Source: Rhodomicrobium sp. R_RK_3 (GTDB taxonomy: Bacteria > Pseudomonadota > Alphaproteobacteria > Rhizobiales > Rhodomicrobiaceae). Taken from it: a stretch of DNA of 64,000 nt. Below the pieces are notes generated by a model. It saw only the letters and a program-made list of their open reading frames with translations, ran no database searches and was not told the DNA's origin. A program made the position numbers and the translations under genes. Shown one piece after another: positions 4,894-18,037 of the stretch (its first letter is position 1; every line of letters begins with the position of its first letter). The stretch lies in assembly GCF_002198715.1 (NCBI RefSeq), contig NZ_MWLK01000032.1, positions 1-64,000 of the forward strand, in the 5' to 3' direction.

Positions 4894-7554
4894 CTACTCC
4901 GCCGCCGCCCTGAATGTCTGCGGCGTGTCCTTCAGCATCCGCTTGATCTCCGGCACGCAGGAGCCGCAATTGGTGCCCGCGCGCAGCACCAGCCCGACCG
5001 CCTCGGCGCTGTCGGCGCCTTGGGCGATGGCCGCCGCGATCCGCGCCGCGCGCACCTGGAAGCAGACGCAGACGATGCCGCCCTCCCGGTTGACCGCGCC
5101 GCTCGCCGGACGCCCGGCGAGGATGGCGCGGCGATCCTCCGGCGTCAGCCGCTGTTTCGACAGCAGCGAGGTCAGCCATTCGCCCGGCGGCTCAGCCGGC
5201 TCCGGCGCGACATGGATGGCGGCGATCAGCCGCCCGTCATCGAGGCGCGCCGCGCGGAAAATGCCGAGCCCCGCGTCCTCGAACTCCGCCAAGTCCCCCT
5301 GCCCCGCCAGCCCGCGCGCCCATGCGGCCAGTCCCTCCTCCGGCGCCTCCAGCGCGAAACCCGTCAAGAATCCCCCCGCGACCCGCGATGCCGACCAATA
5401 GGCGCAGCCATCGGGCCGCAGCATCTCCCGCGACAGGCAATAGCCCCAATGCGACGCCGCCAGCGGCCGGATGTGCGCCGGCGTCGCCTTGGATTCCGGC
5501 TGCCCCGACACCGGATCGGTGAGCGGCTGCACCAGCGCGCAGACCCTCGCCGCGCCGCTATTTTCCGCCGACCAATGCATCGGCGCGAACAACGATCCCG
5601 GCCGCTGCCCCTCAGCCAGCACCACCCGCAGCGCCACAGCGCCATAGGCCGTCTTCACTTCGGCAAGGCCGCCGCCCGCTAGCCCGAACCGCGCCGCATC
5701 CTCGGGATGGATCTCGACGAACGGCTCGGCAATGTGCTGCGACAGGCGCGCGGATTTGCCGGTGCGCGTCATGGTGTGCCACTGGTCGCGGATGCGGCCG
5801 GTGTTCAGCACCAGCGGCCAGTCCGCCGACACCGCCGCCGCCAGCCCCGCGCCGCCCGCCGCCACGAACTGCGCCTTGCCGTCCGGCGTGAAGAAGCGGC
5901 CATCGGCGAACAGCCGCCGCGTCGGCGCGCCGCCGCGTGGATGCGGCCACTGAAACGGGCGCATCTGCTCGCATTCGGCCTTGGTCATGCATTCGCGCGC
6001 GGAAATGTCGAAAGCGCGCTGGCCGTCATTCTCGAAACCCGACAGCGCCGCGTGCTCGCGGAAAATATCGGCCGGGCCGGCATAGGCGAAATCGCCGCCC
6101 CAGCCCAGATGCGCGGCGGCCTCGGCGAGGATGCGCCAGTCTGGCCGCGCCTCGCCGGGCAGCGGCAGGAAGGCGCGCTGGCGCGAAATCCGCCGCTCCG
6201 AATTGGTGACGGTGCCGTCCTTCTCGCCCCAGGCGGCGGCGGGCAGGCGGATATGGGCAAGCGCCGCCGTGTCGGTCGAGGCGACGTTTTCCGAGATCAC
6301 GAACAGCTCGAGTTTTGTAAGCGCCGCCCGCGCGCCATCGGCGTCGGGCAGGCTGACGGCGGGATTGGTGCCCATCACCCAGAGCGCCTTGATCTGCCCA
6401 CGCTGGATCGCCTCGAACATCTGCACCGCCTTCAGCCCCGGCCCGGCGACGAGGTTCGGGGCGTTCCAGAAGCGGCGCACGCGGCTCCGCTCGGCTTCGG
6501 AGAAGTCCATATGGGCGGCGAGCATGTTGGCCATGCCGCCCACCTCGCGGCCGCCCATCGCATTGGGCTGGCCGGTCAAGGAGAGCGGGCCGCAGCCGGT
6601 CTTGCCGATCCGGCCGGTCGCCAGATGGCAATTGAGGATGGCGTTGACCTTGTCCGTCCCTTGCGCCGACTGGTTGACGCCCTGGCTGTAGCAGGAGACG
6701 ACGCGCGGCGTCTCCGCCCACCAGCGGTAGAAGCGCTCGATCTCGGCGGCGTCCAGGCCGGTCGCCGCGCTGACGTCACCCGACTGCGCGCGCGCCTCGG
6801 CCAGCGCGGTTTCGAACCCGTTCGTATGCGCCTCGATGAACTCCGCGTCGAGCGCACCGTGGTCCGCCAGCCAGACCAGCAGCCCGTTCCACAAGGCGAT
6901 GTCGGAGCCGGGGGCGATGGAGAGCTGCAGATCCGAGCCCTCGGTGGTCGCCGTGGCGCGCGGGTCGATATTGACGACGCGGGCGCTACGCTCGCGCGCC
7001 TTCTGGATGCGCTGATAGAGGATGGGGTGGCACCAGGCGGCGTTCGATCCCGCCAGCACGATCAGATCGGCCACGTCCAAATCCTCATAGCATTGCGGCA
7101 CCACATCCGCGCCGAAAGCCCGCTTGTGCCCCGCGACGGAGGACGCCATGCACAGCCGCGAATTGGTGTCGACATGCGGCGTGCCGATAAAGCCCTTGGC
7201 CAGCTTGTTGGCGACGTAATAGTCCTCGGTCAGCAACTGGCCGGAGAGGTAGAAGGCGATCGCTTCCGGCCCATGCTCCGCCGCGATGCGGCGGAAACCT
7301 GCCGCCAATTCCGCGAGCGCCGCGTCCCAGCCGACGCGCGCGCCGCCGATTTCCGGGTGGAGCAGCCGCCCCTCCAGATCGATGGTTTCGCCGAGGGCGG
7401 CGCCCTTGACGCAGAGCCGCCCGTAATTGGCCGGATGGGTGACGTCGCCCAGAATGACCGCATTGCCGAGCCCGTCGGGCTTGGCCATCACGCCGCAGCC
7501 GACGCCGCAATAGGGACAGGTCGTCTTCACCGGCTTTGTCTCATGGAGCCGCAT
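4894..7554 (-). CDS. nasA: Assimilatory nitrate reductase catalytic subunit NasA
   Basis: This enzyme reduces nitrate to nitrite in the cytoplasm, using a bis-MGD molybdenum cofactor and an N-terminal [4Fe-4S] cluster (Cys13, Cys16, Cys20, Cys48 in CPYCGVGC...GRLCVKG). The middle of the 886-residue protein is a molybdopterin oxidoreductase plus a molydopterin-dinucleotide-binding domain. The C-terminus carries a BFD-like [2Fe-2S] domain (CVCF...CGSC, about residues 820-870), as in Klebsiella-type NasA. The start is fixed by a one-base TGATG overlap with the upstream flavoprotein gene, which implies translational coupling; the longer upstream frame has no similarity. It is the last gene of the nas operon, immediately downstream of the reductases that probably feed it electrons. 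There is no Tat signal, consistent with an assimilatory rather than a periplasmic enzyme. Confidence 0.96.
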   Translation of the reverse strand: MRLHETKPVKTTCPYCGVGCGVMAKPDGLGNAVILGDVTHPANYGRLCVKGAALGETIDLEGRLLHPEIGGARVGWDAALAELAAGFRRIAAEHGPEAIAFYLSGQLLTEDYYVANKLAKGFIGTPHVDTNSRLCMASSVAGHKRAFGADVVPQCYEDLDVADLIVLAGSNAAWCHPILYQRIQKARERSARVVNIDPRATATTEGSDLQLSIAPGSDIALWNGLLVWLADHGALDAEFIEAHTNGFETALAEARAQSGDVSAATGLDAAEIERFYRWWAETPRVVSCYSQGVNQSAQGTDKVNAILNCHLATGRIGKTGCGPLSLTGQPNAMGGREVGGMANMLAAHMDFSEAERSRVRRFWNAPNLVAGPGLKAVQMFEAIQRGQIKALWVMGTNPAVSLPDADGARAALTKLELFVISENVASTDTAALAHIRLPAAAWGEKDGTVTNSERRISRQRAFLPLPGEARPDWRILAEAAAHLGWGGDFAYAGPADIFREHAALSGFENDGQRAFDISARECMTKAECEQMRPFQWPHPRGGAPTRRLFADGRFFTPDGKAQFVAAGGAGLAAAVSADWPLVLNTGRIRDQWHTMTRTGKSARLSQHIAEPFVEIHPEDAARFGLAGGGLAEVKTAYGAVALRVVLAEGQRPGSLFAPMHWSAENSGAARVCALVQPLTDPVSGQPESKATPAHIRPLAASHWGYCLSREMLRPDGCAYWSASRVAGGFLTGFALEAPEEGLAAWARGLAGQGDLAEFEDAGLGIFRAARLDDGRLIAAIHVAPEPAEPPGEWLTSLLSKQRLTPEDRRAILAGRPASGAVNREGGIVCVCFQVRAARIAAAIAQGADSAEAVGLVLRAGTNCGSCVPEIKRMLKDTPQTFRAAAE

Positions 7555-9125
7555 CAATAGACATCCTGCTGATAGCGACCATCCGCCTTGAGCTTGCCGA
7601 CAAAAGCCCTGGCCGCCGTCTCGCTCATGCCGCCATGCACGGCGACGGACTCGGCCAGCGCGTTTTCCACATCCTTGGCCATGCGCTTGGCATCGCCGCA
7701 GACATAGACATGCGCCCCCTCGCCGAGCCACGCCCAGAGTTTGGCGCCCGCTTCGCGCATCTTGTCCTGCACATAGACCTTGCGCTCGCCGTCGCGCGAC
7801 CAGGCGGTCGACAGATGCGTCAGCACCCCGTCGACGGCGAATTGGTGGATTTCCTCGCGGTAGAAGAAGTCGCAATGCTCGCGCTGATGGCCGAAGAACA
7901 GCCAGTTCCTGCCCGGCGCGGCGGTCGCCTTGCGGTGCCAGAGGAAGGAGCGGAAGGGGGCGATGCCGGTGCCCGGCCCGACCATGATGATCGGCGTCGC
8001 GGGATCGGCGGGCAGGCCGAAGCCGTGCGCCTTCTGAATGTAGACTTTGACGCGTGCGCCGGGCGTCAGCCGGTCGGCCAGGAAGGTCGAGGCGACGCCG
8101 AGGCGGCCGCGCTCGCCGATGGCATAGCGGACGGCGTCGACAGTCAGCGCGAGCTTGCCGGGCGTCGCCGCCGGGGAAGACGAGATGGAATAGAGGCGCG
8201 GTTGAAGCGGCTCGAGGCTTTCCAGGAAGGCTTCCGGGTCGGGATGGACGGGCGCGAATTTCTCCAGCGCCGCCAGCACGTCGAGCGTCGCGGCATCGCC
8301 GTCCGGGTCGCCGCCTTGGGCCAGAAGCTTCGCCTTGCGCCTCCGCTCGCCGCCGGTGACGTAGCCCATCAGCTCGAACAGCATGTCGGGGGCGAGGCCG
8401 AGCGAATAATCCTCGATCAGCGCGGCGCGCAGCGTTTTGCCGCCGACCGGGAAATCGGCGGGCGCGCGCATGGCGGCGAGCACCGCGTCCGCGAGGGCGG
8501 GGTCGTTCTGGGCGAACAGGCCAAAGCTGTCGCCGGGCGCGTAGTCGAGGCCGCAGCCATCGAGGTCGAATTCGACGTGCCGCGCGTCCTTCTCGGAGGT
8601 CTCGCCGGTGAGCCGCCGGGCGCCGAGGAAGGTGGCCTCGACGGGGGCTTCACGCGAATAGCCCGGGATCGCGGCGGGTTTCGGCGTTTCCGCCACGACT
8701 GCCGCCGGAGCCACACCCCCTGCCTCGGCCAGCAGCGTTTTCAGCATCCGGCTGGTTTCCTTGCCGCCGGGGACGCAGAGATTCTGCCGGGCCTCCTCGC
8801 CCTTGAACAGCTTCTCCGCATAGCTCTCGCAGAGATAGCCGCATTGGCCGCAATCCTGCTGCGCCATCGCGGCGAAAAGCTTTCTCGGCAAGGGGCGGTT
8901 CTCCGCGAGGGTCATACGCTCGGGCAAAGGCATGGCGGGATCGTGCCAGGGCGCGCCGTCATCGGCCTCGGCTGGTGCGGGGGTAGTTTGCGGCGTCTCA
9001 AAGGACAGCAGCCCGGCGAAGAAGCCGTTCAGCCATGCCCGCTGCGCATCCGAAAAGGGCGCCGTCGGCGGGATCAGCGGGGCATCTTGCGGCGGCACGA
9101 AGGCTTGCGGCGCTTGGATGGTCAT
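7554..9125 (-). CDS. Iron-sulfur/FAD reductase (sulfite reductase alpha-like), probable electron donor for nitrate/nitrite reduction
   Basis: The protein has 523 residues. About residues 85-120 carry a four-cysteine [4Fe-4S] motif (CGQCGYLCESYA...NLCVPGG). This is followed by a CysJ/cytochrome P450 reductase-type FAD and NAD(P)H module (LYSISSSP for FAD, MVGPGTGIAPFRSF for nucleotide, C-terminal aromatic ending DVY). The flavodoxin (FMN) domain of true CysJ is absent; the iron-sulfur segment takes its place. Homologues are usually annotated sulfite reductase subunit alpha, but no sulfite reductase is nearby. Its position between nirA (ATGA 4-base overlap) and nasA (TGATG overlap) argues that it moves electrons from NAD(P)H, possibly via ferredoxin, to NirA and/or NasA. 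The domain assignment is seen; the partner assignment is inference. Confidence 0.85.
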   Translation of the reverse strand: MTIQAPQAFVPPQDAPLIPPTAPFSDAQRAWLNGFFAGLLSFETPQTTPAPAEADDGAPWHDPAMPLPERMTLAENRPLPRKLFAAMAQQDCGQCGYLCESYAEKLFKGEEARQNLCVPGGKETSRMLKTLLAEAGGVAPAAVVAETPKPAAIPGYSREAPVEATFLGARRLTGETSEKDARHVEFDLDGCGLDYAPGDSFGLFAQNDPALADAVLAAMRAPADFPVGGKTLRAALIEDYSLGLAPDMLFELMGYVTGGERRRKAKLLAQGGDPDGDAATLDVLAALEKFAPVHPDPEAFLESLEPLQPRLYSISSSPAATPGKLALTVDAVRYAIGERGRLGVASTFLADRLTPGARVKVYIQKAHGFGLPADPATPIIMVGPGTGIAPFRSFLWHRKATAAPGRNWLFFGHQREHCDFFYREEIHQFAVDGVLTHLSTAWSRDGERKVYVQDKMREAGAKLWAWLGEGAHVYVCGDAKRMAKDVENALAESVAVHGGMSETAARAFVGKLKADGRYQQDVY

Positions 9126-10900
9126 TCAGCGGCCTCCACCGCGTCGAAGAGGGCATTTAGTGCCTCCGGCTCGTGGCGGCGGGTGAAAGCCTGGAAGGAT
9201 TCCCCGGCGCCCGCGCGTCCGGCCATATAGCCGCGCAGCATTTTTTCGACGAGGCGCGGGCAATCTTCTGCCTTCACATCGTGGAAGACCTCGCGGCCGA
9301 TCATGGCATCCGGTCCGAAGCCGCCGCCGACCAGCACATGGAAGCCCTCGACGGTGTCGTCGCTGCCTTCCAGCGGCACGCGCGTGGCGAGCAGTCCGAT
9401 GTCGCCGATATAATGCTGGGCGCAGGAATGGTGGCAGCCGGTCAGGTGGATGTTGACGGGCGCATCCATCGCGACGCGCGGCTCGACCCAATCCGCGATG
9501 GCCATTGCCGTGCCTTTGGTGTCGGAGGCGGCGAATTTGCAGCCCTTATTGCCGGTGCAGGCGATAAGCCCGGCGCGCACGCTGGTCGCCTTGGCGGTGA
9601 GGCCGATCTCGCGCAGCCGCGCTTCAACGGTCTCGGCATTCTCGGCGCGCACGCCCGAGATCAGCAAGTTTTGCCAGACCGTCAGCCGGATATCGCCGTC
9701 GCCGAGCGCGCGGGAAATTTCCGCGATGCCGCGCATCTGGGCCGACGTCATTTTGCCGACCGGCAGCACCACGCCGACCCAGACCAGTCCGTCCTGCGAT
9801 TGCGGATGCACGCCGACATGCGCCTGCCTATCCTGGCGCGGCGGCGCGATCACCGCCTCATCCGGCAGCCGGGCGAGCTTGCGGCCGAGTTTCTCCTCGA
9901 CGGCGGCGAGGAATTTCTCAAAGCCCCAGGCGTCGAGCAGATATTTCAGCCGCGCCTTGGTCCGGTTGGTGCGGTCGCCGTGGTCGATATAGACGCGCAC
10001 GATGGCGTCGGCCACCCTGACGGCCTCGTCCGGCTTGACGTACGCGCCCGTCGGGCGGGCGAAATCCTGATGGCCGGTGATGCCGCCGAGGCCGAGCCGG
10101 AACCAGACGCCCGGCTCCGCGCCACCCGTCACCGTGACGGCGGTGAAGGCGATGTCGTTGGTGTCCTCCAGCACGGGGATGATGCCGCCGCCGTCGAAGC
10201 CGACATTGAATTTGCGCGGCAGGCCGTAAAGCGTGCGGTTGTTGAGGATGTGGTGATGCCACGCCCGCGCATAAGGGCGCGTGTCGATCAGCTCCTGCGG
10301 GTCGATGCCCGCCGTCGGCGCGCCGGTGACATTGCGGATATTGTCCGCGCCCGCGCCCTTGCAGGCAAGGCCGATCTCCGACAGGCGCTCGATCAGCGCG
10401 GGGCCCTGCGCCGCTGGGATCTCGCGGATCTGCAGATTGGCCCGGGTCGTCACATGCGCGAAGCCGCCGCCATGGCGCTCGGCGAGATCCGCGACACCGG
10501 CGAATTGCCAGTGCTTCAGGATGCCGTTCGGGATGCGCAGCCGGCACATGAAGAAATCTTCGTTCGGCGCGACGTAGAACAAGCCGTGGAAGCGCCAGCG
10601 GAAATTATCGACGCCCTTCGGGAATTGCCCGGCCTCCGCCTCCGATTTCAGCCGCGTATAGGCATCGAACGGGTGATCGTCGCGCTTGGCCTTCTCTTCA
10701 TTGACGAGCTTCTTGCCATCGGCCTCGGTACGCGCCATGGCCTTCAGATGCGGCGCGTCGGGACCGGTCGGCTCAGCGGTGCCGGAGCCCAGCGCGCCGA
10801 GCGGCTTCAGCCCTTTCGCGACACGTCCCGCCTGCACGCCGGAGACGAAGCCTTCGAGATAGCGGCGCTGTTCCTCGGAAAAATCCTGTGCGCCCATCAT
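9122..10900 (-). CDS. nirA: Ferredoxin-type assimilatory nitrite reductase NirA
   Basis: This enzyme carries out the six-electron reduction of nitrite to ammonium at a sirohaem coupled to a [4Fe-4S] cluster. The cluster and sirohaem ligands are visible as Cys448, Cys454, Cys489 and Cys493 (CTGNKGC and CHHSC; C-x5-C-x34-C-x3-C, the nitrite/sulfite reductase signature). The 592-residue length and the tandem ferrodoxin-like half-domains match the NirA family; the N-terminal extension (about 100 residues) is typical of alphaproteobacterial forms. The start at 10900 has a second ATG at 10897; both overlap the end of the upstream FAD oxidoreductase. The stop overlaps the next gene by ATGA. Sulfite reductase is the alternative for this superfamily, but the setting inside a nitrate operon favours nitrite. 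Confidence 0.93.
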   Translation of the reverse strand: MMGAQDFSEEQRRYLEGFVSGVQAGRVAKGLKPLGALGSGTAEPTGPDAPHLKAMARTEADGKKLVNEEKAKRDDHPFDAYTRLKSEAEAGQFPKGVDNFRWRFHGLFYVAPNEDFFMCRLRIPNGILKHWQFAGVADLAERHGGGFAHVTTRANLQIREIPAAQGPALIERLSEIGLACKGAGADNIRNVTGAPTAGIDPQELIDTRPYARAWHHHILNNRTLYGLPRKFNVGFDGGGIIPVLEDTNDIAFTAVTVTGGAEPGVWFRLGLGGITGHQDFARPTGAYVKPDEAVRVADAIVRVYIDHGDRTNRTKARLKYLLDAWGFEKFLAAVEEKLGRKLARLPDEAVIAPPRQDRQAHVGVHPQSQDGLVWVGVVLPVGKMTSAQMRGIAEISRALGDGDIRLTVWQNLLISGVRAENAETVEARLREIGLTAKATSVRAGLIACTGNKGCKFAASDTKGTAMAIADWVEPRVAMDAPVNIHLTGCHHSCAQHYIGDIGLLATRVPLEGSDDTVEGFHVLVGGGFGPDAMIGREVFHDVKAEDCPRLVEKMLRGYMAGRAGAGESFQAFTRRHEPEALNALFDAVEAAE

Positions 10901-12102
10901 GCGGCCTCCGCATAGGCCTGGCCGAAGGCCAGCATGGCGCGGCGCGCGCCGAGCGGCGCGCCCGAGCGGATCAGGTCGAGATACCAGAAGGAATCGTCGG
11001 TATCGCCGTAGAGGATGGCGCCCGCGAGCCGCCCGTCGCGGATGACGAGCTTGCGGTAGGCCGGGATGAGATCGTCGCGCAGGATGATGGCTTCCGCGCC
11101 GATGCCTTCGAAGTCGCCCGCCGAGAACACGGGCACGCCGGAGACCTTTAGGTTCGCCGCCGGCACGGACCCCGCATAGTCAACCGCTTCCCCGCAGAGA
11201 TGCCCGGCAAGCGTCGCCGCCTGCTCATAGGCCGGCTCGACGAGGCCATAGCAGGCGCCGCGATGCTCCGCGCATTCGCCGATGGCGTAGATGCCGGGCC
11301 GCGAGGTCGCTAGGCGGTCATCGATCAGGATGCCACGATTGACGGCGAGCCCGGCGCTCTTGCCCAGCCCGGTGCGCGGCCGGACGCCCGCCGCCATGAC
11401 GACGAGCCCGCATGGCAATTCGCGGCCATCCTTCAGCGTGACGCATGCCACGGCGCCTTGTCCTGAGATGGCGGCGGTCTGCGCCCCGAGCAGCAGTTCG
11501 ATGCCTTTCGCGCGCAGGGCATCAGCCAGCAACGCCGCCGCTTCGGCGTCGAGCTGACGCTCCATCAGCCGGTCCATGAGGTGGATGAGCGTGACCTTGA
11601 TGCCCAGCTTGGCCAGCCCGTAAGCCGCCTCGATGCCGAGCAAGCCGCCGCCGATCACCACCGCCGGCGCTCCGGCCCGCGCCGCCGCCAGCATGACCGC
11701 GACATCGGCCGCCGTGCGGAACGTCACCACGCCGGGCAGGTTCGCGCCAGGGACCGGCAGCCGGATCGGATCGGAACCGGTCGCCAGCACGCAGGCATCG
11801 AAATGGCGCACCAAGCCGCTGGCGCAGGTCACGCTCTTGCCCGCCGGATCGAGTGTCACGACCTCATCGCCCGTCACCAGCTCGATGCCGAGATCGGCAT
11901 ACCATTCGGCCGGGCGCAATTGCACGTCCGCCCAGGCGATCTCGCCCGCCAGCATGGGCGAGAGCAGGATGCGGTTATAGCCCGCCTCCGGCTCCGCCCC
12001 GATCACGGTCACCGCGAAGGCATCGACATCGCGCGCGAAAAATTCCTGCAGGAACCGCACGCTCGCCATGCCATTGCCGACGACGACGATGGATTTCGTC
12101 AT
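10897..12102 (-). CDS. NAD(P)/FAD-dependent oxidoreductase (NirB N-terminal/rubredoxin reductase-like)
   Basis: A 401-residue pyridine nucleotide-disulfide oxidoreductase. It has an N-terminal Rossmann FAD motif (VVVGNGMASVRF), a central NAD(P) motif (VIGGGLLGIEAAYGLAKLG) and a C-terminal FAD contact (YAIGECAEHRG). The sequence resembles the N-terminal half of NirB, without the BFD and sirohaem domains. In Bradyrhizobium a gene of this type (Flp) lies beside a globin and the nitrate reductase and is reported to take part in nitrate/nitrite assimilation and NO handling. Here it sits between globin and nirA, overlapping the start of nirA. It may donate electrons to NasA, or reduce the globin as a stand-alone NO dioxygenase reductase. 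The family is certain; the partner is inferred. Confidence 0.88.
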   Translation of the reverse strand: MTKSIVVVGNGMASVRFLQEFFARDVDAFAVTVIGAEPEAGYNRILLSPMLAGEIAWADVQLRPAEWYADLGIELVTGDEVVTLDPAGKSVTCASGLVRHFDACVLATGSDPIRLPVPGANLPGVVTFRTAADVAVMLAAARAGAPAVVIGGGLLGIEAAYGLAKLGIKVTLIHLMDRLMERQLDAEAAALLADALRAKGIELLLGAQTAAISGQGAVACVTLKDGRELPCGLVVMAAGVRPRTGLGKSAGLAVNRGILIDDRLATSRPGIYAIGECAEHRGACYGLVEPAYEQAATLAGHLCGEAVDYAGSVPAANLKVSGVPVFSAGDFEGIGAEAIILRDDLIPAYRKLVIRDGRLAGAILYGDTDDSFWYLDLIRSGAPLGARRAMLAFGQAYAEAA

Positions 12103-12123
12103 ATGCTGCTCACCCTGCCCTGT

Positions 12124-12549
12124 TCATTCCGCCATCGCCGCCGCGTCATAGGCCTCGGAAATCATGTAGCCGGAGAGGGTCGAATAGGCCCTCGCCCAGG
12201 CGGTGGCGGTATCCGGCGTCCACTGATCGCCGAGGCCCTTTTCCAGCGTCCACAGCAGCGCCTCGCCGACCGGGCCGTAATGGTCGGGCTGCACGCCATA
12301 GCCGACATGCTTCTTGGCGAGTGCGCTCGCCGCCGGCAGGATCGTCACGAGGTCGCTCAGGCCGCCGACGACATAGCCGAGCGTGCCCATCAGCTTGCGG
12401 CCCTGCTCGGTCATGTCGGACTGGAAGAGCGGTTTCACCTCGGGCGCGATCTCGAACAGCCGGCCGTAGAACAGCGCGGCCGCCTGATCGGAGATGGGCT
12501 TCACTTGGGCAAAGCTGGACTGGATCAATGCAACGTCATGCGCATTCAT
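12124..12549 (-). CDS. Single-domain bacterial haemoglobin
   Basis: A 141-residue globin of the Vitreoscilla/flavohaemoglobin-N-terminal type. The proximal (F8) histidine is His81 in KKHVGYGV. Gln49, in the TEQGRKLM segment, occupies the likely distal E7 region, as in VHb. There is no attached reductase domain. It lies 21 bases upstream of the FAD oxidoreductase in the nitrate operon, the arrangement seen in Bradyrhizobium, where the operon globin protects against nitric oxide produced during nitrate assimilation. A strong AGGAGG-type ribosome binding site precedes it. NO detoxification, with the neighbouring oxidoreductase as reductase, is the most likely role; oxygen binding is not excluded. 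Confidence 0.93.
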   Translation of the reverse strand: MNAHDVALIQSSFAQVKPISDQAAALFYGRLFEIAPEVKPLFQSDMTEQGRKLMGTLGYVVGGLSDLVTILPAASALAKKHVGYGVQPDHYGPVGEALLWTLEKGLGDQWTPDTATAWARAYSTLSGYMISEAYDAAAMAE

Positions 12550-12567
12550 GCAGATCTCCTCCTCGGG

Positions 12568-13371
12568 TCAGGCGGCTTCGACGAAGCCATGGCGCTCATA
12601 CAGAAATTCCAGCACGCGCTGGCGCGCGCGGATGTAGGCCGGGTCCGCGACCAGCTCGAGGCGCTTCCTCGGGCGCGGCAGATCGACGGTCAGGATCTCG
12701 CCGATCTTGGCGGCCGGGCCGTTGGTCATCATGACGATGCGGTCCGAGAGCAGCACGGCCTCGTCGACGTCGTGGGTGATCATGATGACGGTGTTCTGCA
12801 ACCCGGCATGGATGGCCATGACCTGATCCTGGAGATGGGCGCGGGTCAGCGCGTCGAGCGCGCCGAAGGGCTCGTCCATCAGCAGCACCTTCGGCTCCAT
12901 CGCCAGGGCGCGCGCGATGCCGACGCGCTGCTTCATGCCGCCGGAGATTTCGGACGGGCGCTTGTCCCTGGCGTGGGCCATCTGCACCAGTTCGAGCTTC
13001 TCCATGGTCCACAGATGCCGCTCGGCCCGCGATTTCGTGCGGAAGAACACCTTGTCGACGCCGATGCGGACATTGTCGTAGACGCTGAGCCAGGGCAGCA
13101 GGGAGTGGTTCTGAAACACCACGGCGCGGTCGGGGCCGGGCGCGTCGACCACCTTGTTCTCCAGGAACACCACGCCGCTGGTGACGCGGGTCAGCCCCGC
13201 GATGAGATTCAGCATCGTGGATTTGCCGCAGCCGGAATGGCCGATGATGGAGACGAATTCGCCCTTCTCGACGGCGAGGTCGACGCCCTTCAGCACGACC
13301 GAGCTCTGGCCGCCGCGCTCGAACGCCTTGTCGACCTGTTCCAGTTTCAGAAGCGGTTTTTGCGGGATCAT
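12568..13371 (-). CDS. nrtC: Nitrate ABC transporter ATP-binding protein
   Basis: This 267-residue ATPase powers nitrate import. Walker A is GHSGCGKST (residues 44-52), the Q-loop follows (VVFQNHSLLPW), the ABC signature is ISGGMKQR (142-149), Walker B is VLLMDEP (162-168) and the H-loop is MITHDVDEA. The ATG at 13371 is preceded by a GAGGAG ribosome binding site ten bases after the permease stop; an upstream in-frame start would run into the permease gene. The sequence is of the NrtD/SsuB/TauB type, and lacks the C-terminal sensor domain of cyanobacterial NrtC. It is co-transcribed with nrtA and nrtB. Confidence 0.94.
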   Translation of the reverse strand: MIPQKPLLKLEQVDKAFERGGQSSVVLKGVDLAVEKGEFVSIIGHSGCGKSTMLNLIAGLTRVTSGVVFLENKVVDAPGPDRAVVFQNHSLLPWLSVYDNVRIGVDKVFFRTKSRAERHLWTMEKLELVQMAHARDKRPSEISGGMKQRVGIARALAMEPKVLLMDEPFGALDALTRAHLQDQVMAIHAGLQNTVIMITHDVDEAVLLSDRIVMMTNGPAAKIGEILTVDLPRPRKRLELVADPAYIRARQRVLEFLYERHGFVEAA

Positions 13372-13381
13372 GCTGGTCTCC

Positions 13382-14305
13382 TCAAACGCCAGGTGCGCCG
13401 CGCGCGGCAATCCGTCCGACGAGCGCGACAAGCCGGTCGAGCAGGAAGCCGACGACGCCGATATAGACGAGGGCGACGATGATGTCGGACAGCCGCGAGG
13501 AGTTCCACGCGTCCCAGATGAAGAAGCCGATGCCGACGCCGCCGGTCAGCATTTCCGCCGCCACGATGGCGAGCCACGACAGGCCGACGCCGATGCGCAG
13601 GCCGGTGAAGATGTAGGGCGCGGCCGACGGCAGCATGATGCGCCAGAAGAATTCGAGCTGGTTGAGGCGCAAGACGGCGGCAACGTTGCGGTAATCCTGC
13701 GGGATGTTGCGGATGCCGACGGCGGTGTTGATGATGATCGGCCAGATCGCGGTGATGAAGATGACGAAGATCGCCGAAGGGTTGGCGTCGCGGAAGGCGG
13801 CGAGCGAGAGCGGCAGCCAGGCGAGCGGCGGCACGGTGCGCAGCACCTGGAAGATCGGATCGAGCCCGCGCATCGCCCATTGGCTCTGGCCGACCAGCGC
13901 GCCGAGCGCGATGCCGGCGATGGCGGCGAGGCCGAAGCCATAGGCGACCCGCTCGAGGCTCACGAGCACGCGCCAGCCGAGGCCGAGGTCCTGCGGGCCG
14001 TAATTGAAGAAGGGCGAGACGATCAGATCCTTGCTGTCCGCCCAGATTTTCGTCGGCGACGGCAGGCTGGAATTGGGGGCTGATGTGGCGAGCTGCCAGA
14101 AGACCAGCATGAGGAACAGCACGATCAGCGGCGGCACGACGGCGGTCGCTACGGCCTTGGCCTGTTTCAGCGCAGCGCCGGCGAAATCATAGCGCGCGGG
14201 CGGCGCGGCCGGGGGGGCCGCGTCTGATGGGAGGGGCACGGAACCGGCGCGCGTCACCTTGACGGCGCCGCGGAGCGCTTCGGCATTGATCAGAGGTCGG
14301 GTCAT
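13382..14305 (-). CDS. nrtB: Nitrate ABC transporter permease
   Basis: A 307-residue inner-membrane permease of the NrtB/SsuC family. A cytosolic N-terminus of about 55 residues is followed by six predicted hydrophobic segments, and an EAA-type coupling loop near LEFFWRIMLPSAAPYIFTG contacts the ATPase. It lies between nrtA and nrtC. A perfect 12-bp stem-loop separates it from nrtA. Substrate specificity (nitrate, perhaps nitrite) is taken from the operon, since the family also includes sulfonate, taurine and bicarbonate permeases. Confidence 0.93.
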   Translation of the reverse strand: MTRPLINAEALRGAVKVTRAGSVPLPSDAAPPAAPPARYDFAGAALKQAKAVATAVVPPLIVLFLMLVFWQLATSAPNSSLPSPTKIWADSKDLIVSPFFNYGPQDLGLGWRVLVSLERVAYGFGLAAIAGIALGALVGQSQWAMRGLDPIFQVLRTVPPLAWLPLSLAAFRDANPSAIFVIFITAIWPIIINTAVGIRNIPQDYRNVAAVLRLNQLEFFWRIMLPSAAPYIFTGLRIGVGLSWLAIVAAEMLTGGVGIGFFIWDAWNSSRLSDIIVALVYIGVVGFLLDRLVALVGRIAARGAPGV

Positions 14306-14365: not shown

Positions 14366-15685
14366 TCAGACTTCGGCGCGTTTGATGGAGAGCGATTTCA
14401 GATAGGCCATGGGATCGGCCGGATCGAACACCTTGCCGTCGAAGAAGGTCTCGGCCCCGCGCGACGTGCCCTCCGGCGCGGCGACACCCAGATCCTTGGC
14501 GGCCGCCCGCCAGATGTCCTCGCGGTTGACCTTGTCGACGAGGGCATTGATGTCGGTCTTGGCCTCGAACTTGCCCCAGCGGATATCCTCGGCGACGAAC
14601 CAGGCATCGTGGCTCTTATAGGGATAGGAGGCAAAGCCCTCCCAGAACTTCATATATTGCTTGGTGCCGGTCTCGACGCGGCCATTGCCGTAATCGTAAT
14701 CGCCCTTGAGGCGGCCGACGATGTCGGCGACGGGCACGTTGAACCACTGCCGCTTGCCGACGATCTCGGCGAGTTCGGCGCGGTTCTCCATCTTGTCGCA
14801 CCAGATCTGCGCTTCCATCACGGCGGTGAGGATGGCCTTGGCGGCGTTGGGGTTCTTGTCGACGAAATCGGCGCGCAGGGTCAGCGCCTTTTCCGGATGC
14901 TTGGACCAGATCTCGCCGGTGGCGCAGGCGGTGTAGCCGATGCCCTGGTTGACCAACTGGCCATTCCAGGGCTCGCCGACGCAGAAGGCATCCATATTGC
15001 CGACCTTCATGTTCGCCACCATCTGCGGCGGCGGCACGACGATGGTCTGCACGTCCTTGTCCGGGTCGATGCCGCCGGCGGCCAGCCAGTAGCGCATCCA
15101 CAAATCATGCGTGCCGCCGGGGAAGGTGACGGCGACCTTGACCTCCTTGCCCTCGGCCTTCTTCTTGGCGAAAGCGGCCTTCAGCGAGGAGGCATCGACG
15201 CTCGCCTTGAGGTCCTGATATTCGTTGGAGACCGAGATCGCCTGCGCGTCGAGATTCAGCCGCGCCAGGATGTACATCGGCGTCGGCACGTTGTTCTGCG
15301 TAACCTTGCCGGTCGAGATCAGATAGGGCATGGGCGTCAGGATATGCGCGCCGTCGATGCCGTTCGCCGCGCCGCCGAGCACGAGATTGTCGCGCGTCGC
15401 GCCCCAGGAGGCCTGCTTGTTCACCTCGACATCGGGCATGCCGTATTTGGCGAAGAGCTTCTTCTCCTTCGCCACGACGAGCGGGCCCGCATCCATCAGC
15501 GCGATATAGCCGAGCACGGCTTTGGTCGTCTCGGGACCGGCCGCCCAGGCGACATGGGCGCCGAAGGGGAAGGCGGTTTTGGCGGCGGCCAGCACGGCGG
15601 CGGCGCCGGCGCCCTTCAGCACGGCGCGGCGCGAGGCATGTTTTTTGGTCAGAATGGTCTTCAGATCGCCTGTCACTTTGCTCAT
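14366..15685 (-). CDS. nrtA: Nitrate-binding periplasmic protein NrtA, Tat-type signal
   Basis: This 439-residue CmpA/NrtA-family protein delivers nitrate to the NrtBC importer. The N-terminus has a twin-arginine signal (ASRRAVLKG, then a hydrophobic stretch ending AWAAG), so it is probably exported folded. Conserved NrtA segments include YIALMDAGPLVVA at the start of the mature protein and the GGIDPDKDVQTIVVPPP block in the middle. It is the first structural gene after the regulated leader. Its neighbour NasS shares the same fold but has no signal peptide. Bicarbonate binding (CmpA) is an alternative for the family, but the operon settles on nitrate. Confidence 0.95.
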   Translation of the reverse strand: MSKVTGDLKTILTKKHASRRAVLKGAGAAAVLAAAKTAFPFGAHVAWAAGPETTKAVLGYIALMDAGPLVVAKEKKLFAKYGMPDVEVNKQASWGATRDNLVLGGAANGIDGAHILTPMPYLISTGKVTQNNVPTPMYILARLNLDAQAISVSNEYQDLKASVDASSLKAAFAKKKAEGKEVKVAVTFPGGTHDLWMRYWLAAGGIDPDKDVQTIVVPPPQMVANMKVGNMDAFCVGEPWNGQLVNQGIGYTACATGEIWSKHPEKALTLRADFVDKNPNAAKAILTAVMEAQIWCDKMENRAELAEIVGKRQWFNVPVADIVGRLKGDYDYGNGRVETGTKQYMKFWEGFASYPYKSHDAWFVAEDIRWGKFEAKTDINALVDKVNREDIWRAAAKDLGVAAPEGTSRGAETFFDGKVFDPADPMAYLKSLSIKRAEV

Positions 15686-15771
15686 CCTTCTCGATCACCC
15701 CTGTGGTTGCGCCGGGCATTCCCCGCTGCCGTCGAACATCCCGCGTCCGGACGCTCGGGCTCCGGACAAAC

Positions 15772-15834
15772 AAAAAGCGCCGCGTCGAAAGGCCGGCCTG
15801 GAACATGCCCAAGCTCTCCTTCGACTGGCGGCGC
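15772..15834 (-). terminator. Leader intrinsic terminator (attenuator) upstream of nrtA
   Basis: Read on the minus strand, a 5' arm beginning GCGCCGC (15834-15828) pairs with GCGGCGC (15783-15777). A further TCGAA/TTCGA helix (15825-15821 with 15790-15786) sits above a small internal loop. TTTTT follows at 15776-15772. The hairpin lies about 85 bases before the nrtA start, so transcription from the upstream promoter would stop here unless it is prevented. A second small inverted repeat (15745-15767) follows it. Confidence 0.75.
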
Positions 15835-15860
15835 TGCCTCAGCGGCCCCTCATCGGGCCG
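15825..15860 (-). promoter_or_regulatory. Tandem hairpin antiterminator element, probable NasT (ANTAR) target
   Basis: Two adjacent hairpins are visible in the leader RNA. P1 (15860-15843) is CGGCCC, hexaloop GATGAG, GGGCCG. P2 (15842-15825) is CTGAGGC, hexaloop AGCGCC, GCCAG, with a two-base bulge. ANTAR proteins bind two-hairpin motifs with six-base loops carrying A at position 1 and G at position 4. P2 fits both positions; P1 has G4 but G at position 1. P2 contains the 5' arm of the downstream terminator, so forming P2 would block termination. This is the expected architecture for NasT control; binding is inferred. Confidence 0.7.
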
Positions 15861-15920
15861 TTATGTTCGATGGGTGCGCTCTCCGGGCCGTCATTGGCCA
15901 CGCACCGACGGCAGGTTGTA

Positions 15921-15936
15921 TACAAAAAACGTGCCA
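15921..15936 (-). promoter_or_regulatory. Sigma54-like promoter for the nrtA-nasA operon
   Basis: The minus strand reads TGGCACGTTTTTTGTA. It matches the RpoN consensus TGGCACG-N4-TTGCA except for T in place of C at the -12 GC. Transcription would start near 15910 and run through the antiterminator and terminator to nrtA. This fits dual nitrogen control: NtrC/RpoN for ammonium limitation and NasS/NasT for nitrate. No clear NtrC palindrome was found upstream within the 130 bases to nasS. Confidence 0.6.
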
Positions 15937-16071
15937 GTTTCGGTGCGGCTAAATAATATGCTGAAAGCAACGCGCTAGTGGAAGCCGTGCGATCTGACGG
16001 AATCGGGGTTGATGGAGTTTTGTGCAGTGCGGAAATTTTTTGCTTAGCAACACGCCATTGGCGATGGGTGG

Positions 16072-17274
16072 CTATTTTCCGGGCACGCCGAAAGGAAGCC
16101 CGCCGCCGAGCCGAATAGGGCCGAGACTGCCGGGTATATCCGATGGCCCTGCAAGGGTCTCGTCCTTGCTATCGGAAAGCGGCGCGGACAGGCCGAGCCG
16201 GGCGGCGGCCAGCCGGAAAATGTCGGGCCGGTAGACCTGCCGCGCCACTAAAGCGGGGTCCATATCCGGCTCGATCTGCCGCCAGCGCTCCATCTGCCGG
16301 ACCATCCATTCCGCGTGCGAAAGCCAGGGGAAATTGGCGGCATAGCGCGAGAAGACGAGGAAATCCGGGTTGGGCCTTGCCGCCTCGCCCTTGGCGCGGA
16401 CCAGATTGCCGGCCAGCGCGTCGTAAAGCATCGGCTCGGCGACGCCGATGTGGCGCGGCTCGGCCAGCAGATGCGCCGCCTCGACAAAATTGCCGCGATC
16501 CTCCAGCCACGCCGCCGCCTTCAGCAGCGCACAGACCAGCGCGATCAGCAAATCCGGTTTTTTCGCCGCCCAATCCTCGCGCACGCCGAGCACCTTTTCC
16601 GGGCTGTTCGGCCAGAGGTGGTTCTTCGCCGCGATGATGCGCCCCTGCCCTGCCTCGACCGAGATCCGCCCCCAGGGCGCGCCGACGCAGAAGCCGTCGA
16701 TGCGGCCTTCGGCGAGACTGTCGGCGATCAAGGGCGGCGGAATGACGACGAGGTTGACGTCATTATCCGGGTCGATGCCGGCCGAGGCGAGCCAGCAGCG
16801 CATATCGTAATTATGACAGGAGAACGGATAGACCATGCCCAGCGTCAGCGGGATCGCACCCGCCGCCCGCCGGGCCGTGACGACGCGCGCCAGCGCCCAG
16901 GCAGCACGCATTCCGCCCGCATCCGTATCGGCCGGATCGGCGGCGTGCATTTCGGCAAATAGCTCCTCCGAGACCACGATGACATTGCCGTTCAGATTGA
17001 GCGCCATCGGCGCGATCACCGGCGTCGGCGGGCGCCCGAGCCCGAGCGTCGATGCGATTGCCATCGGGGCAAGCAGATGCGCGCAATCGAAAATGCCCAT
17101 CTCGAGCTTGTCGCGGATATTGGCCCAGGACGCTTCCTTATGCAGCCGCAGCGAAAAACCCTGCTCGGTGTCAAAACCCTTCCGCGCCGCGACGACCAGC
17201 GGCGCGCAATCGACGAGCGGGATGAAGCCCGCATGGATGATGGGCAGGCCGCCGTCTTCCGTGTCGTCCGGCAT
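16072..17274 (-). CDS. nasS: Nitrate/nitrite sensor NasS (NrtA-like, cytoplasmic)
   Basis: A 400-residue member of the NrtA/CmpA fold (IIHAGFIPLVDCAPLVVAA near the start, GIDPDNDVNLVVIPPP in the middle). It starts directly with the mature domain and has no signal peptide, so it stays in the cytoplasm. In Azotobacter, Paracoccus and Bradyrhizobium NasS holds the antiterminator NasT inactive until nitrate or nitrite binds. Its ATG lies three bases after the nasT stop, so the pair is co-translated. The gene order nasT-nasS-leader-nrtA suggests autonomous expression of the regulator pair, with the assimilation operon under its control. Confidence 0.93.
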   Translation of the reverse strand: MPDDTEDGGLPIIHAGFIPLVDCAPLVVAARKGFDTEQGFSLRLHKEASWANIRDKLEMGIFDCAHLLAPMAIASTLGLGRPPTPVIAPMALNLNGNVIVVSEELFAEMHAADPADTDAGGMRAAWALARVVTARRAAGAIPLTLGMVYPFSCHNYDMRCWLASAGIDPDNDVNLVVIPPPLIADSLAEGRIDGFCVGAPWGRISVEAGQGRIIAAKNHLWPNSPEKVLGVREDWAAKKPDLLIALVCALLKAAAWLEDRGNFVEAAHLLAEPRHIGVAEPMLYDALAGNLVRAKGEAARPNPDFLVFSRYAANFPWLSHAEWMVRQMERWRQIEPDMDPALVARQVYRPDIFRLAAARLGLSAPLSDSKDETLAGPSDIPGSLGPIRLGGGLPFGVPGK

Positions 17275-17277
17275 GGC

Positions 17278-17901
17278 CTATTCCTTCAGCAATTCATAAG
17301 CGCTGATCAGGCTTTCCGCGACTTCGCCCATGCGCTTGTTCTGGTTCATCGCCGCCCGCCGCAGCAGCGCATAGGCGTCTTCCTCGCTGAGCCCCCTGCT
17401 CTTCATCAACAGCGCCTTGGCGCGGTCGATGATCTTGCGCTCCTTCAGCGCGACCTTGGCCGATTCCAACTCCGCCTTCAGCGCGTCGAAGGCGCGGAAA
17501 CGGGCGATGGTCATGTCGAGGATCGGCTTGACGCGCTCCTTCTTCAGCCCGTCGACGATATAGGCGGAAACGCCCGCATCGATCGCAGCCTCGATGGTGG
17601 AACGGTCGCTCTGATCGACGAACATGGCGATCGGCCGCTTGACCGCGCGCGACATCTGGAACATCTGCTCCAGCACGTCGCGGCTCGGATTTTCGAGGTC
17701 GATGATGATGATTTCGGGGTCGATGGCGTAGACCTGCTCGATCAGCCCGGTGGTCTTGGTGACCAGCGTGACATTGGCAAAGCCCGCCTCGCGCAAGCCC
17801 GCTTCCAGGATCGCGCGCCTCGCCGGGTCCTCGTCGATGACGAGGATGCGCAGGGCCTGATCGGTTTGCAAGCTTTCGGCGGCCAAGGCTTCGCTCTCCA
17901 T
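17278..17901 (-). CDS. nasT: ANTAR-domain antiterminator NasT
   Basis: A 207-residue response-regulator-like protein. The N-terminal pseudo-receiver (ILVIDEDPARR; IIIIDLENPSRD) is followed by a C-terminal ANTAR RNA-binding domain (about 150-205: RAKALLMKSRGLSEEDAYALLRR, abbreviated here as RAKALLM...EEDAYALLRR). When released from NasS it binds two-hairpin leaders and prevents termination. A matching leader lies just downstream of nasS. The start at 17901 (ATG, MESEALAAES) is preferred; an upstream in-frame TTG at 17988 would add 29 residues without similarity. No strong ribosome binding site is visible for either, so the exact start is uncertain. Confidence 0.92.
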   Translation of the reverse strand: MESEALAAESLQTDQALRILVIDEDPARRAILEAGLREAGFANVTLVTKTTGLIEQVYAIDPEIIIIDLENPSRDVLEQMFQMSRAVKRPIAMFVDQSDRSTIEAAIDAGVSAYIVDGLKKERVKPILDMTIARFRAFDALKAELESAKVALKERKIIDRAKALLMKSRGLSEEDAYALLRRAAMNQNKRMGEVAESLISAYELLKE

Positions 17902-18037
17902 CTTGCCCAAGGGGTCGCGCAGATTGTCCGCCAAGCCGGTGACGGCACAAGCGATATTGTCCCGATGTGGCTGTAAGTCCAGGGCCAATCGGCGCGCGAG
18001 CGGGATTAGCCGTGCCGCGCGCGCTGAAAATGCGGCT

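What the first reader, a model, noticed from the sequence alone, without database searches (positions are those of the whole stretch)
15772..15936. Complete NasT-type antitermination leader with mutually exclusive P2 and terminator
Seen: two adjacent hairpins with 6-nt loops (GATGAG, AGCGCC), directly followed by a terminator whose 5' arm (15834-15818) lies partly within hairpin P2 (15842-15825). Known: ANTAR proteins bind two-hairpin motifs with A1/G4 hexaloops and thereby block a terminator. nasS and nasT are directly upstream. The P1 loop deviates (G1 rather than A1), which could show a relaxed consensus in this lineage.
Basis: partly seen in the sequence, partly recalled or inferred. Interest (0 to 1): 0.65.

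Follow-up and report, generated by a model that had tools for sequence, protein, structure and literature searches.

The report
Three-hairpin nitrate-responsive antitermination leader
Between the nitrate-sensor genes nasT-nasS and the nitrate-uptake operon this bacterium has an RNA switch that probably lets transcription continue only when the protein NasT holds it open; the switch is of a known kind, but it carries an extra, third NasT-style hairpin at the very start of the RNA that recurs in many relatives.

Summary
Confirmed. On the minus strand, between nasS and the nrtABC/nas operon, lies a leader with an exact sigma-54 promoter (15936-15921, +1 near 15910), hexaloop hairpins P1 (15860-15843, GATGAG) and P2 (15838-15827, AGCGCC), and a -35 kcal/mol terminator whose 5' arm takes over P2. 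Folding the growing transcript keeps P1 formed, and P2 only until the terminator's 3' arm appears. A covariance model from 43 other nasTS-downstream leaders, window excluded, ranks this site first in its 5.8-Mb genome. The same layout lies behind nasTS in most Hyphomicrobiales examined outside Bradyrhizobium. G1 in a hexaloop is a recurrent minority variant (4/43 P1, 6/43 P2); G4 is nearly invariant. A P0 at +6..+16 occurs in 10/34 leaders of the order (shuffled 0.8) and in 8/11 leaders of other alphaproteobacterial orders (shuffled 0.15). It probably loads NasT early; that step is inferred. By-product: Rfam's 'narK RNA' (RF03032) is itself a NasT-type leader.

The parts
15921..15936 (-). sigma-54 type promoter TGGCACGTTTTTTGTA (-24/-12); predicted +1 near 15910
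   Evidence: only exact match to TGGCACN5TTGYW in the window, both strands; promoters of the same type in front of nearly all relatives' leaders
15886..15899 (-). P0: GGCC-AATGAC-GGCC, A1/G4 hexaloop, loop starting at +16; sits inside an outer helix 15906-15900 with 15879-15873
   Evidence: enrichment of such a hairpin at +6..+16 in relatives
15843..15860 (-). P1: CGGCCC-GATGAG-GGGCCG, G1/G4 hexaloop (recruitment hairpin)
15827..15838 (-). P2: GGC-AGCGCC-GCC, A1/G4 hexaloop (antiterminator hairpin)
15771..15835 (-). intrinsic terminator: stem 15835-15818 with 15792-15776, U-tract 15776-15772; 5' arm overlaps P2
   Evidence: -35.3 kcal/mol; folding series
17278..17988 (-). nasT: receiver + ANTAR RNA-binding protein
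   Evidence: Pfam PF00072 and PF03861; PDB relatives 6wsh/6ww6 EutV, 4akk NasR, 1s8n
16072..17274 (-). nasS: NrtA-like nitrate/nitrite sensor, no signal peptide apparent in the sequence
   Evidence: PF13379 1.2e-72; sequence
14366..15685 (-). nrtA: first gene of the controlled operon, with a Tat-like signal sequence
   Evidence: PF13379 9e-107; 64-83% identical orthologues behind nasTS in many genomes
4894..14305 (-). rest of the presumed controlled operon: nrtB, nrtC, globin, FAD reductase, NIR_SIR nitrite reductase, flavoprotein reductase, molybdopterin nitrate reductase (NasC type, 7560-4894)
   Evidence: that they form one transcript is inferred from order and strand

Best explanation
A NasT-dependent transcription-antitermination leader for the nitrate-assimilation operon. 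Under nitrogen limitation sigma-54 RNA polymerase starts at about 15910 (inferred from the promoter). The RNA folds P0, then P1, then P2; unless something holds P2, the stronger terminator takes P2's loop and 3' arm and transcription stops at the U-tract 15776-15772. With nitrate or nitrite, NasS lets go of NasT (shown in Paracoccus, not here); free NasT binds the hexaloops through G4, is recruited at P0 and/or P1 and passes to P2, which keeps the terminator from forming, so the operon is read. Shown here: the parts, their conservation, and the mutual exclusion in silico. Inferred: NasT binding, the loading role of P0, and the nitrate response.
For: Gene order nasT-nasS-leader-nrtABC-nas. The same P1-P2-terminator layout behind nasTS in relatives, P2-terminator overlap 5-14 nt throughout. 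Held-out model: best site in own genome, E 0.016. At E<=0.01 the motif is found in 64 of 294 order genomes, 63 of which are also NasT-positive. Outer P1 pairs, not needed for selection: 25 cells changed on both sides, covariation 0.66 against 0.19 shuffled, 0/500. P2 pairing falls from 0.81 to 0 as the terminator arm emerges. Exact sigma-54 promoter. NasT keeps the EutV Tyr164 and Met172 positions (roles from PMC8934654). P0 enrichment also in lineages not used for the model: 8/11 against 0.15 expected. In Paracoccus NasT binds the nasA leader and NasS-NasT comes apart with nitrate (PMC3795266), and a leader hairpin is needed for induction (PMC5424462).
Against: P1 has G1 where the published consensus has A1, and changing A1 lowered induction and binding in EutV's target (PMC3369931). 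The P1-P2 linker is 4 nt, just under the 5-12 nt of the eut leaders, though short linkers are normal among these relatives. No expression, RNA-end or binding data exist for this organism. The model score, 30.4 bits, is lower than that of the best relatives (up to 49.5). The 43 seed hairpins were picked by pairing, so the inner-stem counts are biased.
Confidence: 0.93

Rival explanations
1. It is only the rho-independent terminator of the nasTS operon; the hexaloops are incidental and nrtABC is driven by a separate promoter downstream of it.
For: The terminator lies about 300 nt behind nasS and is very strong.
Against: A sigma-54 promoter lies between nasS and the terminator, not behind it. P1 and P2 with constrained loops overlap the terminator in dozens of genomes; loop positions 1, 2 and 4 are far from random in a count that put no condition on the P1 loop.
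Confidence: 0.03
2. The antitermination reading is right for P1-P2, but P0 is not a NasT site: it is a general 5'-end hairpin (for example 5'-end protection).
For: Some relatives have a 5'-end hairpin with a 4- or 5-nt loop, for example G110, G140, G210. Many leaders have no P0. In the window P0 lies 25 nt from P1, beyond the linker range tested for eut.
Against: Among hexaloops at the 5' end the A1/G4 class is singled out: 18 of 42 against 42 of 976 in nasS coding DNA, Fisher p 7e-13, and 8/11 leaders in other orders. The narK-type leaders and L180/L187 use a hairpin at this same place as their only hexaloop upstream of P2.
Confidence: 0.3
3. Another factor, such as the genome's AmiR-like ANTAR protein (G000:C15), is the cognate regulator rather than NasT.
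For: A second ANTAR gene exists.
Against: It sits beside an amide/ABC-type receptor cluster; the leader's position behind nasTS is conserved.
Confidence: 0.02

Closest known systems
NasT-regulated nasA leader of Paracoccus denitrificans (PMC3795266, PMC5424462) and nosR/nirA leaders of Bradyrhizobium diazoefficiens (PMC6759348)
   Same: nasTS next to a nas operon, leader hairpins, NasT binding, release of NasT from NasS by nitrate, antitermination
   Different: The passages read do not describe a 5'-terminal third A1/G4 hexaloop; the sequences of those leaders were not compared here
EutV/NasR/AmiR dual-hexaloop ANTAR targets (PMC3369931, PMC8934654)
   Same: P1 folded in both states, P2 inside the terminator, G4 in every loop
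   Different: P1 has G1; linker 4 nt; an extra hexaloop P0; the sensor is a separate binding protein (NasS) rather than a kinase or a NIT domain
Rfam RF03032 narK RNA
   Same: sigma-54 promoter, 5'-end A1/G4 hexaloop, second A1/G4 hexaloop overlapping a terminator, NasT in all 16 genomes above the gathering score
   Different: Two hairpins only, the first at the position of P0; the window does not match the model

Membership tests
ANTAR-target antitermination leader (NasT type) | two adjacent stem-loops with 6-nt loops | tested here: met
ANTAR-target antitermination leader (NasT type) | G at loop position 4 in both loops | tested here: met
   G15851 in P1, G15832 in P2 (also G15892 in P0)
ANTAR-target antitermination leader (NasT type) | A at loop position 1 in both loops (published consensus; treated here as a preference, not as defining) | tested here: not met
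   P2 has A1, P1 has G1. G1 occurs in 4/43 P1 and 6/43 P2 loops of nasTS-downstream relatives, and A1 makes no specific contact in the EutV-RNA structure
ANTAR-target antitermination leader (NasT type) | intrinsic terminator whose 5' arm overlaps P2, so that the two exclude each other | tested here: met
ANTAR-target antitermination leader (NasT type) | cognate ANTAR protein encoded nearby | tested here: met
   nasT 17988-17278
ANTAR-target antitermination leader (NasT type) | binding by the ANTAR protein and inducer-dependent read-through | not testable with these tools
   needs gel shift, RNA-end mapping or a reporter
Rfam RF03032 narK RNA | match to the covariance model at the gathering score | tested here: not met
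   no RF03032 match in the window, also at a permissive threshold

The most novel reading that the evidence does not exclude
NasT leaders of Alphaproteobacteria often carry three ANTAR hexaloops: a 5'-terminal loading hairpin P0 made within the first 30 nt or so after a sigma-54 start, then P1, then P2, with NasT passed along the chain to the antiterminator. Such a three-step relay is not described in the ANTAR papers read here.
Probability: 0.5. Interest if true: 0.6.

Novelty: new variant of a known kind. Interest (0 to 1): 0.45.

Why it matters
It ties nitrate assimilation in a large group of soil bacteria to a defined RNA switch that can be tested base by base. It also shows a regular feature that was not looked for, a promoter-proximal third hexaloop, which bears on an open question about ANTAR proteins: how a dimer that can hold only one loop at a time (PMC8934654) reaches the antiterminator hairpin in time. 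And it gives a function to an Rfam motif, narK RNA.

Tried and rejected
Rfam at gathering and permissive thresholds on the window: only chance hits. The generic terminator scan missed this terminator because it allows loops of at most 8 nt. A second NasT site in the own genome: nothing above 21.6 bits. NtrC-site pattern: no match near the promoter at up to 3 mismatches, and in the window no more matches than chance. Idea that P0 compensates for G1 in P1: rejected by inspection, since L174, L182 and L193 have G1 and no A1/G4 P0. The covariation table as a whole was set aside for the inner stems because the hairpins had been selected by pairing; only the two outer P1 pairs are used. Most Bradyrhizobium nasTS loci have no such terminator behind nasS, so they were left out. 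The paper that described narK RNA is not in the library.

Full report
Observation. The minus strand between nasS and nrtA was read and folded. A scan for hairpins with 6-nt loops between 15960 and 15800 gives three whose fourth loop base is G and which lie upstream of or in the terminator's 5' arm: P0 GGCC-AATGAC-GGCC (15899-15886), P1 CGGCCC-GATGAG-GGGCCG (15860-15843) and P2 GGC-AGCGCC-GCC (15838-15827). The terminator stem is 15835-15818 with 15792-15776, -35.3 kcal/mol, followed by the U-tract 15776-15772. Its 5' arm contains the P2 loop and 3' arm, 9 nt of overlap. Only 2 of 200 shuffles of the leader fold as well.

Mutual exclusion. Base-pair probabilities were computed for transcripts of growing length from 15910. 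P0 is formed throughout (0.82-1.00) and P1 nearly so (0.93 or more at most steps, lowest 0.68). P2 reaches 0.81 when the RNA ends at 15826, varies between 0.08 and 0.72 while the terminator loop and part of its 3' arm are made, and is 0.00 when the RNA ends at 15775. P2 alone is worth -4.3 kcal/mol, so it needs help to persist. This is the arrangement of the eut leader: P1 folded in both states, P2 buried in the terminator (PMC8934654).

Surroundings. nasT has a receiver and an ANTAR domain. Its closest solved relatives include EutV and NasR. Aligned to EutV, the tyrosine and methionine that the EutV paper assigns to loop binding are present (Tyr164, Met172); of the two lysines K143 is kept and K147 is an arginine (residue numbers by counting in the alignment with an offset of 2). 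nasS is an NrtA-like protein whose sequence begins without an apparent signal peptide, while the next gene, nrtA, begins with a Tat-like signal. Downstream on the same strand follow nrtB, nrtC, a globin, an FAD reductase, a nitrite-reductase-type protein, a flavoprotein and a molybdopterin nitrate reductase. The only exact sigma-54 promoter match in the window is at 15936-15921, giving +1 near 15910.

Comparison. 140 loci, nearly all carrying NasT relatives, were collected with the search for related loci and from one genome per genus in the order. With the window, 137 allowed the end of nasS to be placed. In 93 a terminator-like hairpin was found within 560 nt; the strong ones more than 170 nt behind nasS were kept, 72 loci. 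Most of these have P1 and P2 with loops close to AAnGAC and AAnGCC and a P2-terminator overlap of 5-14 nt. A search for the hairpin next to P2 with any loop length and any loop sequence gives mainly 6-nt loops, or 4-nt loops that are the same loops with positions 1 and 6 able to pair; among the 36 plain hexaloops 34 have A1 and 35 have G4. Most Bradyrhizobium loci do not show this layout behind nasS.

Model. 43 P1-P2 sequences, window excluded, were aligned and made into a covariance model. It finds the window's site first in the whole genome, 30.4 bits, E 0.016, the next site 21.6 bits. In 294 genomes of the order, 64 have a hit at E 0.01 or better, and 63 of these appear in the NasT-positive list (seeds come from some of these genomes, so this is partly built in). 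Because the hairpins were chosen by pairing, only the two outer P1 pairs, which were not required, are used as covariation evidence: 80% paired, 25 double changes, covariation score 0.66 against 0.19 shuffled, 0 of 500 shuffles.

G1. G1 occurs in 4 of the 43 other P1 loops and 6 of the 43 P2 loops, T1 once. The EutV-RNA structure shows G4 stacking on Tyr164 and no specific contact to A1, yet changing A1 in the eut leader lowered induction and binding. So G1 is tolerated in this lineage but may cost affinity. Leaders with G1 in P1 whose positions 1 and 6 cannot pair are the window and L174.

P0. In 45 leaders the 70 nt upstream of P1 hold 13 A1/G4 hexaloop hairpins with at least 4 pairs, against 1.8 +- 1.4 in shuffles, while the other loop classes have at most 5 each. 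Anchored on the sigma-54 promoter, these loops mostly start at +7 to +16. After removing near-duplicates and leaders in which P1 itself is 5'-terminal, 10 of 34 leaders of the order have such a hairpin at +6..+16, against 0.83 in shuffles, 0 of 1000 reaching 10. The model was then run over other orders of the class; these leaders were not used to build anything, and 8 of 11 have P0, against 0.15 expected, 0 of 1000. Hexaloops in the first 36 nt are A1/G4 in 18 of 42 cases against 42 of 976 in nasS coding DNA of the same genomes (a few of the 18 are P1 itself, for example L166, L183, L192). In three loci, L177, L180 and L187, P0 and P2 are present without an adjacent P1 hexaloop, a plain helix lying between them. 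The window's P0 loop, AATGAC, is one of the commonest P1 loops of the relatives.

Interpretation of P0. The EutV work proposes that a dimer holds one loop at a time, loads on P1 (the recruitment hairpin) and moves to P2. A further G4 hexaloop at the 5' end is then naturally a first loading point, available as soon as about 25 nt of RNA exist. This is inference; P0 could instead be a general 5'-end hairpin, since some relatives have a 5'-end hairpin with a shorter loop.

narK RNA. Rfam's RF03032 came up as a sub-threshold hit on one relative. Its consensus reads as a sigma-54 promoter, a hexaloop AACGGC at +13 and a second hexaloop AAAGAC. The genomes over the gathering score, 16 of 398 in the phylum, all encode NasT, and their sequences show the second hexaloop at the foot of a terminator-like inverted repeat with a T-run. 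So narK RNA looks like a two-hairpin NasT-type leader. A library search found no occurrence of 'narK RNA' or 'narK motif' in the papers listed, and the paper that described the motif is not held, so whether this has been said before could not be checked.

Verdict. The finding is right in observation and interpretation. The leader is a NasT-type ANTAR antitermination leader under a sigma-54 promoter; it differs from the textbook form by G1 in P1 and by P0. NasT binding, nitrate response and the role of P0 remain to be shown at the bench.

Noticed in passing
L268-L283 around position 1500 (RF03032 hits); L069:7974-8043: Rfam 'narK RNA' RF03032 is a sigma-54 promoter plus two A1/G4 hexaloops with an overlapping terminator; all 16 genomes above its gathering score carry NasT.
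   Followed up: partly
L177, L180, L187, upstream of the leader terminator: A leader form with P0 and P2 but no adjacent P1 hexaloop; an ordinary helix fills the gap and may bring P0 next to P2.
   Followed up: no
window 14366-17274: Mosaic locus: the window's NasS is closest to the Filomicrobium type (57%), whose downstream nrtA is only about 33% like the window's, while the window's NrtA is 64-83% like that of other genera.
   Followed up: no
window 17278-17988: NasT: similarity to most relatives starts only at residue 35-46, so the true start is probably downstream of the TTG at 17988; the receiver lacks the CheY Lys-Pro (YIVDG instead of YVVKP), in line with control by NasS rather than by phosphate.
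   Followed up: no
G000:C15:25354-25491 (L002): Second ANTAR gene of the genome, AmiR-like, beside an amide/branched-chain-type binding protein and an ABC permease.
   Followed up: partly
G276:C12:123889; G012:C23:168855; G290:C1:760981; G131:C1:789199: Extra P1-P2 model hits, one just behind nasT and others about 4-5 kb downstream of the first leader, suggesting a second NasT site in the same cluster in some genomes.
   Followed up: no
L064-L142, Bradyrhizobium loci: Most Bradyrhizobium nasTS loci have no strong terminator leader directly behind nasS, unlike the other families.
   Followed up: no
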